NCBI GenBank assembly: GCA_001799485.1
Contig: MGTO01000059.1
Span: forward strand, 1 to 32,956
Direction: 5' to 3'
Length of the DNA stretch: 32,956 bases
Source of the DNA: Desulfuromonadales bacterium GWC2_61_20
Lineage (GTDB): Bacteria > Desulfobacterota > Desulfuromonadia > Desulfuromonadales > UBA2197
Shown here: piece by piece, positions 1 to 6,340 of the stretch
Position numbering within the stretch: the stretch's first letter is position 1
Layout: each line of letters opens with the position of its first letter
Translations under genes and position numbers: made by a program
Notes under the pieces: generated by a model
Database searches by the model: none
Seen by the model: only the letters and a program-made list of their open reading frames with translations
What the model was told of the DNA's origin: nothing

Positions 1-118
1 AGCTTGCCGGCGATGACGTTGAAGGCCCGGGCGATCCCCGAATCGGTGGTGCGGCTGCCAGCTTGCCGGCGATGACGTTGAAGGCCCGGGCGATCCCCGA
101 ATCGGTGGTGCGGCTGCC
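1..118. repeat. 59-bp tandem duplication at the window edge
   Basis: Bases 1-59 are repeated exactly as bases 60-118; the next base differs from the one that follows the first copy (a at 60, g at 119). The unit is 59 bp, not a multiple of three, so in the minus-strand actin-like gene the second unit read (1-59) is shifted in frame. An exact repeat placed at the extreme end of a sequence is typical of a contig-end assembly artefact, but a real slippage duplication cannot be excluded. Confidence 0.95.
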
Positions 119-661
119 GCGTTCCGAATAGCGCATCTTGTCGGCAACCTCGCCGAGATCGTTGAACATACGCTGGAAGAGGGAGCCAAAGGGTTGGGGA
201 ATGACCCGCTCCTTGTTGATGTTGATGACCTTCTCGACCCGCTTGCCGTCGGCGCCGACGAGGACAACCTTGTGTTCCCCCTGCAGCAGACGGGCGAGTT
301 CGTCCTTGTGCTGGCGGTAATAGCCGATGGGGAGTCCGGTGACCAGATTGATCGGGATGAAGCCGCCGACCAGTCGCGCCGCCGCCGTCAAGGCCAGAAT
401 CTTGGCGAACTGACTGACGAATTGGGCCTGATCGAGGGTAAAAAAGCGCACGTTGCTCTGGCGCTCGGCAAGCTCGCCGACAAAGAACTCCTTGCCGTCA
501 ATCTCGACCTGCAGATGTTCGTCCCCAGCGTTGTCACCGATGAGATTTTCCCGGTACTGCAGCTCCGTCGCCTCGCCGAAGACCGACTTGAAGACCAGCT
601 CACGGCTGCCGTTGGTCGCCTTGGTGAAACCGAAACCGATGTCGATACCGAGAATTTCCAC
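1..661 (-). CDS. Actin-like ATPase, ParM/StbA family (partial, disturbed)
   Basis: The gene starts at a GTG (659-661) preceded by a GGAGAG Shine-Dalgarno and runs off the left edge. The N-terminus reads EILGIDIGFGFTKATNG, the phosphate-1 loop of the actin/ParM/MreB superfamily (D-x-G-x-G-x-T-K). Other conserved-looking stretches are LTAAARLVGGFIPINLVTGLP (about residues 91-111) and RVIPQPFGSLF (about 152-162). Such proteins form ATP-driven filaments and can segregate plasmids or position complexes; the cargo here is unknown. Two oddities are visible. The 59-bp duplication at the edge throws the frame out after about residue 201. The expected phosphate-2 motif (VVDIGxxTTD-like) is not seen before residue 175, where the sequence jumps to MRYSERGSRTTDSGI. 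The DUF1015 gene ends 39 bp upstream on the same strand, so the two are probably co-transcribed. The family call is firm; whether the gene is intact is not. Confidence 0.8.
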   Translation of the reverse strand, partial: MEILGIDIGFGFTKATNGSRELVFKSVFGEATELQYRENLIGDNAGDEHLQVEIDGKEFFVGELAERQSNVRFFTLDQAQFVSQFAKILALTAAARLVGGFIPINLVTGLPIGYYRQHKDELARLLQGEHKVVLVGADGKRVEKVININKERVIPQPFGSLFQRMFNDLGEVADKMRYSERGSRTTDSGIARAFNVIAGKLAAAPPIRGSPGPSTSSPAS

Positions 662-2195: not shown

Positions 2196-2585
2196 CTACC
2201 AGCATTTGCTCGGCAGGGCCGGGGTGCGGGCGCCGGTCTGGTCGATGGTCAGGGTGCCGCATTCGTCGCCCACCTGCACCCCTTGGGGAACCGCCTGGAT
2301 GATGAAGTTGGAGGCGTCAGGAGCGCCGGAGTAACTCAGAGCGTAGGTGTTGCCGCTCACCGTCGCCGGGCTCAGGGGGGCGCCGGCGTAGGTGCTGTTG
2401 CGAGTGAAGAAGCGTTCCATGTTCTGGGCTCCCTCAACCAGGGCCGCCTTGGCCGAGGCCCGGTGCGAACGCTGGGTATAGCCGCGGTAGGTTGGGATGG
2501 CAATGGCGGTGAGGATGCCGATAACGGCAATGACCACAACCAGCTCGATGAGGGTGAATCCGCGCACTTCATTGCAAGTCGGCAT
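2196..2585 (-). CDS. pilE: Type IV pilin-like minor pilin (PilE type)
   Basis: This prepilin has 129 residues from the chosen start. The leader MPTCNEVRG is followed by FTLIELVVVIAVIGILTAIA, so the prepilin peptidase (PilD) should cut after Gly9 and methylate Phe10. Glu14 is the conserved Glu5 of the mature pilin. The N-terminal hydrophobic helix is followed by a short globular part with two cysteines near the C-terminus (DECG and the terminal KCW). Those cysteines could close the disulfide-bonded D-region typical of type IVa pilins. The ATG at 2585 is preferred because AAGGAG sits 6 nt upstream; an ATG at 2600 and a TTG at 2603 are in frame but have poorer spacing. It is the last gene of the fimT-pilV-pilW-pilX-pilY1-pilE series and starts about 20 bp after the pilY1 stop. 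It is more likely a minor pilin than the major PilA because of this context. Confidence 0.88.
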   Translation of the reverse strand: MPTCNEVRGFTLIELVVVIAVIGILTAIAIPTYRGYTQRSHRASAKAALVEGAQNMERFFTRNSTYAGAPLSPATVSGNTYALSYSGAPDASNFIIQAVPQGVQVGDECGTLTIDQTGARTPALPSKCW

Positions 2586-2605
2586 CTGCTGCTCCTTCAT
2601 CAAGG

Positions 2606-5600
2606 TTAGATCTCCTGCCAGGAGATACGGCCGCTGCCGACGCTGTCGGCTTCGAGACCGGTGAGGTTGACCGAACCGTCGGAATTCTCCGTCGTCGTCG
2701 TCGTCGAGTCGGTGACGCCGCCGGTGACCGTTTCGATGGTGATGGTGATGGTGTTGTCCGAATTGCGCGTCACCGTCGTCGTCCGGAGGTCGCCACCGAC
2801 GTAGGTGATGACGGTGGTGGTGACATTCTCGACGATGGTCGTCACCACCGACTCGATATCGTCGGCCGGGCGAGCAGTAAAGCTGCCGTCATTGGGGTCA
2901 GCGGCGCCGGGGGAAGGGGTCGAGGCCGCCGTCGTCGAAATCGCCGTATCTTCCGGCGGGTTGACGACCCAGCCGGCGACATCGGAGCACATACCGTTTT
3001 CATGATGCCAGAAGATGGTGTATTCGGCAATGAGAGAAGCATCTCGGCTCGTCTTCTTGACGCGGTAACCGTAGCGCAAGTCACCGGCAACGTTGAGTTC
3101 GACATTGGCCGCCGGGGTATTGTACTTGATGATCTGGAAGGTCAGGGCGCCGTTGCGCCAGGTGCCGAGGATGCCGTCCTGCTTGGCCGCGTCATAGGCC
3201 CCCTTGACGCAGCCGGTCTGGGTCGGGATGAGGCCGGCGCGGACGACCCCGGTCCCCCAGTCCCGCGATTCGAAGGCGAGAAGGGGGAGATTGACCATCA
3301 GCGAATTGATGTCGGCTATGGTGTAGGTCAGCACCGAGGCGTTGCCGAGGGAGTCGACCACCGCTTGGTTGTCGTAATCGATGACCTTGATGTAAGGGTT
3401 GCCGCCGATGCTCAACTTGGCCGCCGGCGACAGGGTGGCATTGACGACCAGAACCTTGAACTTGACCGCAGTGCTCTTGATGACGTTACCGAGGTTGGTC
3501 CCGGCGATACTGCCGTTCAACATGTTGACGCCGGTGACATCGAACTTGTCGTCATATTCGTGGGTATGGGTATCGACTTCCGACGCCCACGCCCCGGCGA
3601 CGCAGGTCGTATCCGGCCGTTTGACCGTGCAAGTCGTCTGCGGCGCCCCGATGTTGCAGGTCGTCGTCCAGTTTTTGGTGAGACAGGTCGTCGTCGTGTC
3701 GACGGTGGTGCAGTTCGTCGTGGTCGTGGTGATGGTACAGGTGGTTTTCCACACCCCGCTGACCTTGGCATAGACGCAGCTTTCGGTCTGGTTTGAGGCC
3801 AGGGTGTAGATCGGTGAGGCAAAGGTCTGGCACGAACCGGGGGAGCGATGGTCACCTGTGCAGGTCTTGGTCGAAGTGGCCGTTGACGCTGTACAGGTCT
3901 GGGCCCGCCCGTCAGGTAGGGTATAGGTCGGAGTATCGTAATCAGCGCAGCCGGTGCCGGTGGTGTGATTCCCGGGACAGTTGTAAGACGGCCCGGCAAC
4001 GGAGGCCTTGGTGCAGGTCTGGGTCGTCCCGACGGCAAGGGTGTAGGGCGGGGTGTCGTAGGTCTGACAGCCCGCCGCGACGCGGTCGCCGGGGCAGTCA
4101 TAGGTCGGCCCGTTGGTTGAAGCCTCGGTGCAGGTCTCCGACGAGCCGACGGGAACGCTATAGGTTGGCGAACTGTAGGTCGCGCACGAATCGGGGGATT
4201 TATGCTGACCGGGGCAGACCTGGGTTGAGGATATCAGTAGACCGGAAACACAGGCCTCGGTGTAGCCGGTGGGGACGGTGTAGTCGCCAGGACTGGGGCT
4301 GTTGGTTATGCACGAATCGGGGCTCGGATGCGAACCGTCGCAGGTATAGGTGCCGTCAACGACCATACTGCTGGAGCAGGTCTGCGGCGGCCAGTGGCTG
4401 TCCCAGTCGAAGTGCCCGCCCGAAACGCCACGGTCGGGAGGAGGGGCGGGAATGACGTAGTCGGGGTTGCGGGTGTAGAGGGTGGTGTTGAGAACTTTAA
4501 GGTCGACCAGGACCGGCTGCGAGACAACCCCCGAATCAAGGTATTTGGAGACGGGAATCCCCGGCGCTCCGGCGATGAATGGACCATCCGGGTAGCTGTC
4601 GCGCAGACGGTCGTAGTCGTTGATGACAAGGTCGCTGTTCATGTCGTTGAAGGGGCGATAGTAGGCGCCGCCAGTGAGGTAATCAAGTTCGCTCTTCCAG
4701 TTTTCACCACTGGCGCCGCTAGGGTTGATATTGACCGTCGGGTTGGTGCTGTTGAAGACGTAGCGCCCGCTCTGGACATAGGTGCCGTCGCCGAGGACAC
4801 GTTCCCCGGCTGGCAGGGGAGTGCGCCAGGCATTGTGACCGGCGGCCGTATAGTCGAAGGGGGTGTTGGTGACGGTGCGCACGCGGTAGGTGGTGACCCC
4901 GGAGACGTAGGTCGTTTCAGTGAAGGCCTGGTTCAAAAGGCCAGTTCCGGGAGCGCCGACCCAGACGCCGTAAGCGTAATGGATGGCATTGTCGGTCTTG
5001 TCGGCCGGGGTAAACATGCGCCCGGTGGCGAAGTTGACCATGACCCCCCCTTTGGGGTGGACCGTCACCGCCGGCGCCGTGGTGATGGCCTGGCCGGCGT
5101 CGTACACCTGGGTGGCGGTCCAGGCGCCGGGGGAGGCGTTGGTCAAGTCAAATTTCCACATCTTGCCGTCGATGTCGCCGGCATAGGCATAATCGGCGAT
5201 GTCGTCACCGTTGAGATCGAGAACGGTCGGTGTCGCCAGGCCATTGGGGCCGCCGACCCCGGCGAGACCGGTGTCGATCTCTGCGATGCGAACGCCGGTC
5301 TCGAGGTTGATGACATAGAGGACGGCGTGTCCGTTACCGCTGTTGACATAGCCGTTACCGACGATGACCGCCGGGGTGAAGACCCCGCTACTTGTCTGCA
5401 CGTTCATGATCGACGGGGTGTTGTAGGTAAAACCGAGGTTGGTGAAGCCGGTGGAACTGTTGCTGATCTCCCACAGGGCGCGGCTGGCGGCGTCACTCTC
5501 CGAGGTCGGGACCGGACTGGTGATTTCGAGGCAATAAAGCCCCTTGCCGCCGGCGCCGAGGCCTCCGACCATGAATTTGCGGTCGACGCCGCCGATGGTC

Positions 5601-6340
5601 ACTTGGGCATAGGCCATGGAGGCGTCGACAAAATAGGCGTGAGCGGCGGCATTGTAGGGATCGACATTCAGCCGTGTCAGCTTGGAAATGAGCATGGAGG
5701 GGATATAGGCATAGACTTCGTCGCCCCCCTCGCGCCCCAGCGCGGTGGCGGCGGCATTATTGACGTTGAGGACGTGGACCATGCCGTCGTTGGCGCCGAA
5801 GTAGAGGAGCCCATCAATGAGGTAGGGACGCGAGTGCATGACATCGCCGAGAACCTTGACCCGGGCGCGATAGAGATTGAGACCGTTGGGCTTCTCGTTG
5901 GTACGATCACCACGGATGTAGTTGAGGTAGTACTCGGTGCCGAGGGCGGTCGTTTGGCTCGCCGAGAGGCTGGCCCAGCGGAAGCGGGCGCCGCTGGCGC
6001 CGTTTTTGGTGACGATCCAGCGGCTGGTGTCGTAGTTCTGGGCGTCGATATGGTCGGCGGCGCCATTCCAGTCCTCGACGGCATAGTTGATGATGCCGCG
6101 GTCGCTGATCGGGTATGAATAGACGTTGCCGTACCAGAACTCGCGATTATAGGTCGTCTGGTAACTCGTCTCGGCCCCCGACGACAGATCATAACTGGAG
6201 AGGGCCGGCTGAACGACGTAACCGACGGTCTGAAGTTCGGGATTGAAACTCACCGCGGCAAAAGCTGCCGGCGCCGCCAGCAGCAGAGAGAGGAGACTGA
6301 GGGCGCAGCGGAGGCCAAACTGGCGAAAGGTCGTGGTCAT
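2606..6340 (-). CDS. pilY1: PilY1 pilus-tip adhesin/assembly protein with cysteine-rich insert
   Basis: This secreted protein has 1244 residues and a Sec signal peptide (about residues 1-28, ending AAFAA). AAGGAG lies 9 nt before the ATG. Residues about 160-620 match the PilY1 beta-propeller domain (for example HSRPYLIDGLLYFGANDGMV). They include a calcium-binding loop of the PilY1 type, DLNGDDIADY (375-384), and a dockerin/EF-hand-like loop DMNSDLVINDYD (566-577). PilY1 proteins cap type IV pili, help pilus extension and bind surfaces. I see no N-terminal von Willebrand A domain like that of Pseudomonas PilY1. Residues 655-913 hold 22 cysteines in regular arrays (separate repeat entry). A C-terminal region beginning around HTHEYDDKFDV follows, and the protein ends in a Thr-rich tail (about 1150-1225). 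It sits between pilX and pilE in a classic minor-pilin operon. The family call is very secure; the role of the Cys-rich region is unknown. Confidence 0.95.
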   Translation of the reverse strand: MTTTFRQFGLRCALSLLSLLLAAPAAFAAVSFNPELQTVGYVVQPALSSYDLSSGAETSYQTTYNREFWYGNVYSYPISDRGIINYAVEDWNGAADHIDAQNYDTSRWIVTKNGASGARFRWASLSASQTTALGTEYYLNYIRGDRTNEKPNGLNLYRARVKVLGDVMHSRPYLIDGLLYFGANDGMVHVLNVNNAAATALGREGGDEVYAYIPSMLISKLTRLNVDPYNAAAHAYFVDASMAYAQVTIGGVDRKFMVGGLGAGGKGLYCLEITSPVPTSESDAASRALWEISNSSTGFTNLGFTYNTPSIMNVQTSSGVFTPAVIVGNGYVNSGNGHAVLYVINLETGVRIAEIDTGLAGVGGPNGLATPTVLDLNGDDIADYAYAGDIDGKMWKFDLTNASPGAWTATQVYDAGQAITTAPAVTVHPKGGVMVNFATGRMFTPADKTDNAIHYAYGVWVGAPGTGLLNQAFTETTYVSGVTTYRVRTVTNTPFDYTAAGHNAWRTPLPAGERVLGDGTYVQSGRYVFNSTNPTVNINPSGASGENWKSELDYLTGGAYYRPFNDMNSDLVINDYDRLRDSYPDGPFIAGAPGIPVSKYLDSGVVSQPVLVDLKVLNTTLYTRNPDYVIPAPPPDRGVSGGHFDWDSHWPPQTCSSSMVVDGTYTCDGSHPSPDSCITNSPSPGDYTVPTGYTEACVSGLLISSTQVCPGQHKSPDSCATYSSPTYSVPVGSSETCTEASTNGPTYDCPGDRVAAGCQTYDTPPYTLAVGTTQTCTKASVAGPSYNCPGNHTTGTGCADYDTPTYTLPDGRAQTCTASTATSTKTCTGDHRSPGSCQTFASPIYTLASNQTESCVYAKVSGVWKTTCTITTTTTNCTTVDTTTTCLTKNWTTTCNIGAPQTTCTVKRPDTTCVAGAWASEVDTHTHEYDDKFDVTGVNMLNGSIAGTNLGNVIKSTAVKFKVLVVNATLSPAAKLSIGGNPYIKVIDYDNQAVVDSLGNASVLTYTIADINSLMVNLPLLAFESRDWGTGVVRAGLIPTQTGCVKGAYDAAKQDGILGTWRNGALTFQIIKYNTPAANVELNVAGDLRYGYRVKKTSRDASLIAEYTIFWHHENGMCSDVAGWVVNPPEDTAISTTAASTPSPGAADPNDGSFTARPADDIESVVTTIVENVTTTVITYVGGDLRTTTVTRNSDNTITITIETVTGGVTDSTTTTTENSDGSVNLTGLEADSVGSGRISWQEI
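3596..4378 (-). repeat. Cysteine-rich tandem repeats encoded inside pilY1
   Basis: This stretch codes for PilY1 residues about 655-915. There are five units of about 40 residues, starting at Cys 655, 697, 737, 776 and 816, each with three cysteines spaced about 12 and 10 apart. A typical unit reads CPGxHxSxDSCxTYxxPxYT and so on to a TC. A six-cysteine ladder follows, at residues 868, 877, 886, 895, 904 and 913, exactly nine residues apart in Thr-rich sequence. None is a CxxCH heme motif. The units are degenerate, so this is a protein repeat rather than a recent DNA duplication. Confidence 0.9.

What the first reader, a model, noticed from the sequence alone, without database searches (positions are those of the whole stretch)
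3596..4378. PilY1 carries a cysteine array ending in a ladder of Cys every nine residues
Twenty-two cysteines lie in about 260 residues: five repeats of about 40 residues with three Cys each, then six Cys exactly nine residues apart in Thr-rich sequence (868-913). No CxxCH motif is present. Possible roles are a rigid disulfide stalk, metal binding, or an electron-related surface, in a group known for contact with minerals.
Basis: seen in the sequence. Interest (0 to 1): 0.6.

Follow-up and report, generated by a model that had tools for sequence, protein, structure and literature searches.

The report
Cysteine-ladder insertion in pilus-tip protein PilY1
A protein expected at the tip of a bacterium's grappling pili carries an extra 260-residue segment with 22 regularly spaced cysteines that probably zips up with sulfur-sulfur bonds into a stiff extension; nothing like the repeat turned up in roughly 500 related genomes, so it looks like a lineage-specific custom part on a familiar machine.

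Summary
PilY1 (window 6340-2606, minus strand, 1244 aa) has 22 Cys in residues 655-913: five ~40-residue units of three Cys, one linking Cys (855), then six Cys exactly nine apart (868-913). There is no CxxCH and no CxxC. The repeat is an orphan: no other copy in its own genome, and no relative in 134 genomes of the order, 395 of the phylum, plasmids, phages, PDB, Pfam, NCBIfam or PHROGs. At that site the relatives carry 0, 0, 2 (nine apart) and 4 Cys. Nine-residue spacing is a cross-strand register of a beta-hairpin, and AlphaFold (low confidence) places the last four ladder cysteines mid-strand in a meander. Most likely it is a disulfide-stapled beta extension of the pilus-tip adhesin. Metal or electron roles have no positive support. 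New variant of a known kind; moderate interest, because only one draft genome has it and no disulfide has been shown.

The parts
2606..6340 (-). PilY1 ORF, 1244 aa, N-terminal signal-peptide-like sequence
   Evidence: PF05567 E 2.2e-40; P. aeruginosa PilY1 3HX6 E 1.2e-37
4958..5806 (-). PilY1 beta-propeller, residues 179-461 (N-terminal half of this protein)
5192..5218 (-). DLNGDDIAD (residues 375-383), aligned with DNNSDGVAD of 3HX6, the propeller calcium loop (site recalled from the literature)
   Evidence: alignment
4400..4420 (-). GGHFDWD, upstream invariant motif at the insertion site (residues 641-647)
   Evidence: A4
4259..4384 (-). Cys unit 1, residues 653-694 (C655, C667, C677)
4139..4258 (-). 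Cys unit 2, residues 695-734 (C697, C709, C719)
4022..4138 (-). Cys unit 3, residues 735-773 (C737, C749, C758)
3902..4021 (-). Cys unit 4, residues 774-813 (C776, C788, C798)
3785..3901 (-). Cys unit 5, residues 814-852 (C816, C827, C837)
3740..3784 (-). linker with C855, residues 853-867; truncated start of a sixth unit
3602..3739 (-). Ladder: six Cys nine residues apart (868-913), Thr-rich; predicted beta-meander
3539..3568 (-). HTHEYDDKFD, downstream invariant motif at the insertion site (residues 925-934)
   Evidence: A4
3209..3211 (-). C1044, invariant in all five relatives; candidate partner of C1118
   Evidence: A4, A5
2987..2989 (-). C1118, invariant in all five relatives
   Evidence: A4, A5
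2609..3568 (-). Post-propeller C-terminal domain of a rare PilY1 subfamily, no Pfam or PDB match

Best explanation
The array is a lineage-specific insertion into a length-variable loop of the post-propeller domain of PilY1. After oxidation in the periplasm it most likely folds as a chain of disulfide-closed beta-hairpins: units 1-5 as repeated hairpin modules (three Cys per unit, so at least some bonds cross unit borders) and the ladder as a six-stranded meander with one Cys at the centre of each strand (probable pairs 868-877, 886-895, 904-913). This would give a stiff, protease- and force-resistant extension that spaces or presents the pilus-tip adhesin. Shown: the sequence, the spacing, the insertion position, and the smaller Cys inserts in relatives. 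Inferred: disulfides, stiffness, adhesion.
For: Regular spacing with old, diverged units that all keep C, C, C, G, P, Y. Insertion between invariant GHFDxD and HxHxYDDxxD, while relatives have inserts of different length with 0, 0, 2 (spacing 9) and 4 (spacing 8, 8, 12) Cys. Hairpin geometry (established knowledge): in a two-residue-turn hairpin i and i+9 are opposite each other at a non-hydrogen-bonded site, where cross-strand disulfides sit. AlphaFold strands 884-888, 892-898, 901-907, 911-915 are centred on C886, C895, C904, C913, with C868 and C877 on one long strand 863-879 (partly reproduced). Even Cys number. Minor-pilin operon context with GspH/FimT-, PilW-, PilX- and pilin-type genes. 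A thioredoxin-fold protein with a CSFC motif (DsbC-like) is encoded in the genome.
Against: Models are low confidence (mean pLDDT 41.7 and 49.9) and units 1-4 were not folded. C868 and C877 lie on a single long predicted strand, not on two hairpin strands. No DsbA (PF01323) or VKOR was found in the 79%-complete draft genome. A meander cannot have all neighbouring Cys pairs in the same hydrogen-bonding register, so turns must alternate in type. Only one genome carries the array, so no evolutionary couplings are available.
Confidence: 0.55

Rival explanations
1. The insert is not a stalk but the ligand-binding head of the adhesin: a variable disulfide-rich module whose loops contact the surface or another cell, diversified because the target changes.
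For: Insertion at a hypervariable site, extreme lineage specificity, location in a protein expected at the pilus tip; tip adhesin genes are known to be replaced between Geobacter species (PMC2700814).
Against: Repetitive, Thr-rich, low-diversity sequence is more typical of spacers than of binding heads (general knowledge); no lectin-like or other known fold was found.
Confidence: 0.2
2. The Cys array is a redox- or force-switchable element, an enlarged version of the cysteine-dependent surface sensing proposed for P. aeruginosa PilY1.
For: PilY1 cysteines and disulfides matter for surface signalling in P. aeruginosa (PMC9210963; PMC13190605).
Against: That concerns Cys in an N-terminal vWA domain. 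No Pfam vWA match was found here, and only about 178 residues precede the propeller. No sequence sign of redox switching was tested or seen.
Confidence: 0.1
3. The array binds metal or forms an electron-transfer surface.
Against: No CxxC or CxxCH, no His/Asp pattern inside the repeats, spacing of 9-20 suits hairpin disulfides rather than metal ligands. The flanking His/Asp motifs are conserved in relatives without any Cys insert, so they are not coupled to the array.
Confidence: 0.05
4. Neutral or weakly useful low-complexity growth (Thr-codon slippage plus duplication) with no specific fold.
For: Thr-rich; single-genome occurrence; low-confidence model.
Against: High synonymous divergence with all 15 unit cysteines kept; no DNA tandem array.
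Confidence: 0.1

Closest known systems
PilY1/PilC type IV pilus tip adhesins (PF05567; P. aeruginosa PilY1, PDB 3HX6)
   Same: Homologous propeller over residues 179-461 including the calcium-loop pattern; gene in a minor-pilin operon.
   Different: Propeller lies in the N-terminal half and is followed by about 780 residues without a Pfam match, carrying the Cys insertion; no vWA domain detected.
Cys-rich myxobacterial PilY1 clades 1.5-1.7 (PMC13190605)
   Same: PilY1 with high Cys counts (clade medians 30-41), predicted disulfides, long extracellular parts.
   Different: Passages read describe clade-level counts and vWA plus propeller architectures; no periodic Cys repeat or nine-residue ladder is described in them (find for 'repeat' gave 0 hits).
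Cystine ladders of beta-hairpin peptides (theta-defensins; 'cysteine ladder' in PMC13408038, title and abstract only)
   Same: Proposed geometry: Cys opposed across antiparallel strands forming parallel disulfides.
   Different: Analogy of mechanism only; no homology tested or claimed.

Membership tests
PilY1 / T4P_PilY1 (PF05567) | PilY1 beta-propeller above curated cut-off | tested here: met
   139.3 bits vs 28.1
PilY1 / T4P_PilY1 (PF05567) | Calcium-binding loop DxNxDxxxD in the propeller | tested here: met
   DLNGDDIAD aligned with DNNSDGVAD of 3HX6; its role as calcium site is recalled knowledge
PilY1 / T4P_PilY1 (PF05567) | Gene within a minor-pilin operon | tested here: met
   GspH/FimT-type, PilW, PilX and pilin genes adjacent on the same strand
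PilY1 with N-terminal vWA domain (P. aeruginosa type) | vWA domain before the propeller | tested here: not met
   Only PF05567 matches; the propeller match begins at residue 179
c-type cytochrome / heme protein | CxxCH | tested here: not met
   none in 1244 aa
Disulfide (cystine) ladder in a beta-meander | One Cys per strand, aligned across strands | tested here: inconclusive
   strands centred on C886, C895, C904, C913, but C868 and C877 share one predicted strand; low pLDDT
Disulfide (cystine) ladder in a beta-meander | Cysteines oxidised to disulfides | not testable with these tools
   needs protein

The most novel reading that the evidence does not exclude
This PilY1 subfamily has a dedicated loop, framed by invariant His/Asp motifs, into which different lineages build disulfide-hairpin stalks of very different length (0 to 22 Cys), so that pilus-tip reach and stiffness are tuned by adding Cys hairpins.
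Probability: 0.3. Interest if true: 0.6.

Novelty: new variant of a known kind. Interest (0 to 1): 0.42.

Why it matters
How the PilY1 tip adhesin varies between species and withstands retraction force is an open question. An expandable Cys-hairpin insertion site would be a simple, testable way to change tip reach and stiffness, and the nine-residue Cys ladder is an unusual natural scaffold to compare with designed beta-sheet staples.

Tried and rejected
Search for the array by DNA in plasmids, by protein in phages and plasmids, and as a repeat profile in the order and phylum: no credible relative; the weak hits at E 0.003-0.1 are short and some cross stops. TGY-N24 DNA pattern in 134 genomes: swamped by simple repeats, uninformative. 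The repeat profile could not be used to scan viral contigs; the C-terminal domain profile found nothing there. PDB search with the repeat profile and the C-terminal domain: nothing. Foldseek of the low-confidence model: no match below E 0.97, not interpreted. Barley peroxidase hit at E 0.29 dismissed as chance. Shared-repeat alignments A6 and A7 put identical units on top of each other; only A9 was used for folding. Recent DNA expansion rejected.

Full report
Observation. The minus-strand ORF 6340-2606 encodes a 1244-residue PilY1. Every number in the finding holds: 22 Cys lie at residues 655-913, arranged as five units of three Cys, a linking Cys at 855, and six Cys exactly nine residues apart at 868-913. 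There is no CxxCH and also no CxxC. The outermost codons are window 4378 and 3602, so the given coordinates are right to within a few bases.

More than chance. A run of five equal gaps arose in 27 of 200,000 random placements; this is a post hoc statistic, but the repetition of the 12/10/18 spacing adds to it. Units share C, C, G, C, P and Y in all copies at 33-54% identity to the reference unit. Synonymous differences among units are large (pS 0.47-0.76) and no DNA-level tandem array is detected. The cysteines have therefore been kept while the DNA diverged. GC and GC3 of the array resemble the rest of the gene, so there is no compositional sign of recent import.

Context. The gene sits among GspH/FimT-type, PilW, PilX and pilin genes, with a sigma-54 response regulator and a histidine kinase further along on the same strand: an ordinary type IVa minor-pilin operon. 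The propeller aligns with P. aeruginosa PilY1 3HX6, including its calcium-loop pattern, but it lies at residues 179-461, followed by about 780 residues that match no Pfam family.

Relatives. PF05567 proteins occur in 93 of 136 genomes of the order, but the post-propeller domain of this protein was found in only three other genomes of the order and in a Burkholderiales MAG (L004); a phylum-wide sample of 395 gave one weak hit. The 30 other PilY1 loci checked lack that domain. The alignment (A4) is the key result. In all five proteins the segments GHFDxD and HxHxYDDxxD are invariant and the sequence between them is not: very short without Cys in L004 and G070; a short insert with two Cys nine apart (YTCKTKKGKTECNQ) in G071; a longer one with four Cys spaced 8, 8, 12 in G016; and about 280 residues with 22 Cys here. 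Two further Cys (1044, 1118) are invariant in all five and probably form a separate bond of the domain (inference).

The repeat itself is an orphan: absent elsewhere in its own genome, in 134 genomes of the order, 395 of the phylum, plasmids and phages, and without a match in PDB, NCBIfam or PHROGs. These samples are limited, the metagenome collection could not be scanned, and genome contigs was scanned only with peptide patterns from the whole protein.

Structure. AlphaFold without relatives gave a poor model (mean pLDDT 41.7). Units 1-4 are not folded. The ladder region is modelled as beta strands, with 884-888, 892-898, 901-907 and 911-915 centred on C886, C895, C904 and C913, and C868 and C877 on one long strand 863-879. 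A second run with three rows from the protein's own repeats (mean pLDDT 49.9) again gave strands over 812-828, 851-860, 863-881, 892-898 and 901-907, but not those around C886 and C913. I treat this as suggestive only. From established hairpin geometry, residues i and i+9 face each other across a two-residue turn at a non-hydrogen-bonded pair, the usual place for cross-strand disulfides. In a continuous meander neighbouring pairs must alternate in hydrogen-bond register, so three disulfides (868-877, 886-895, 904-913) are the natural count for six Cys, with the remaining 16 also even.

Oxidative folding. The draft genome (79% complete) shows no PF01323 DsbA and no VKOR, but has a thioredoxin-fold protein with a signal-peptide-like start and a CSFC motif, DsbC-like by my reading. 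The machinery question is open.

Mechanism. Best reading: a disulfide-stapled beta extension of the pilus-tip protein that spaces or stiffens the adhesin. Rivals are a binding head, a redox or force switch like that proposed for P. aeruginosa PilY1, metal or electron roles, and neutral low-complexity growth. The His/Asp motifs that frame the insertion look like a possible metal site, but they are conserved in members without Cys, so they do not support metal binding by the array.

Novelty. High-Cys PilY1 proteins are known in myxobacteria (PMC13190605) and pilY1 replacement between species is known in Geobacter (PMC2700814). A periodic Cys repeat plus a nine-residue ladder at a framed insertion site was not found in the papers searched (9 searches; read mainly by keyword). 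Hence: new variant of a known kind.

Noticed in passing
L004 near 7504: The Burkholderiales PilY1 relative has an in-frame TGA where a relative has Trp (YGI*DGAP vs YGIWDGAP); a nonsense change, sequencing error or recoding. One codon only, so recoding seems unlikely.
   Followed up: partly
residues 641-647 and 925-934 (window 4400-4420, 3539-3568): Invariant GHFDxD and HxHxYDDxxD motifs, with a later conserved FWHH, look like a possible metal site in the uncharacterised post-propeller domain.
   Followed up: partly
G000 contig C8, 4623-4772 (L093): Thioredoxin-fold, DsbC-like protein with both a CSFC motif and an N-terminal CRDCH heme-type motif.
   Followed up: partly
window 1-119: A 59-base stretch at the contig start is directly repeated once; probably an assembly-end artefact.
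   Followed up: no
L027 (G104 PilY1), ORF residues 323-407: A different PilY1 of the order has 8 Cys within 100 residues at another position.
   Followed up: no
window 2196-2603 (-): Pilin downstream of pilY1 matches ComP_DUS (DNA-uptake minor pilin) at E 8.7e-22.
   Followed up: no
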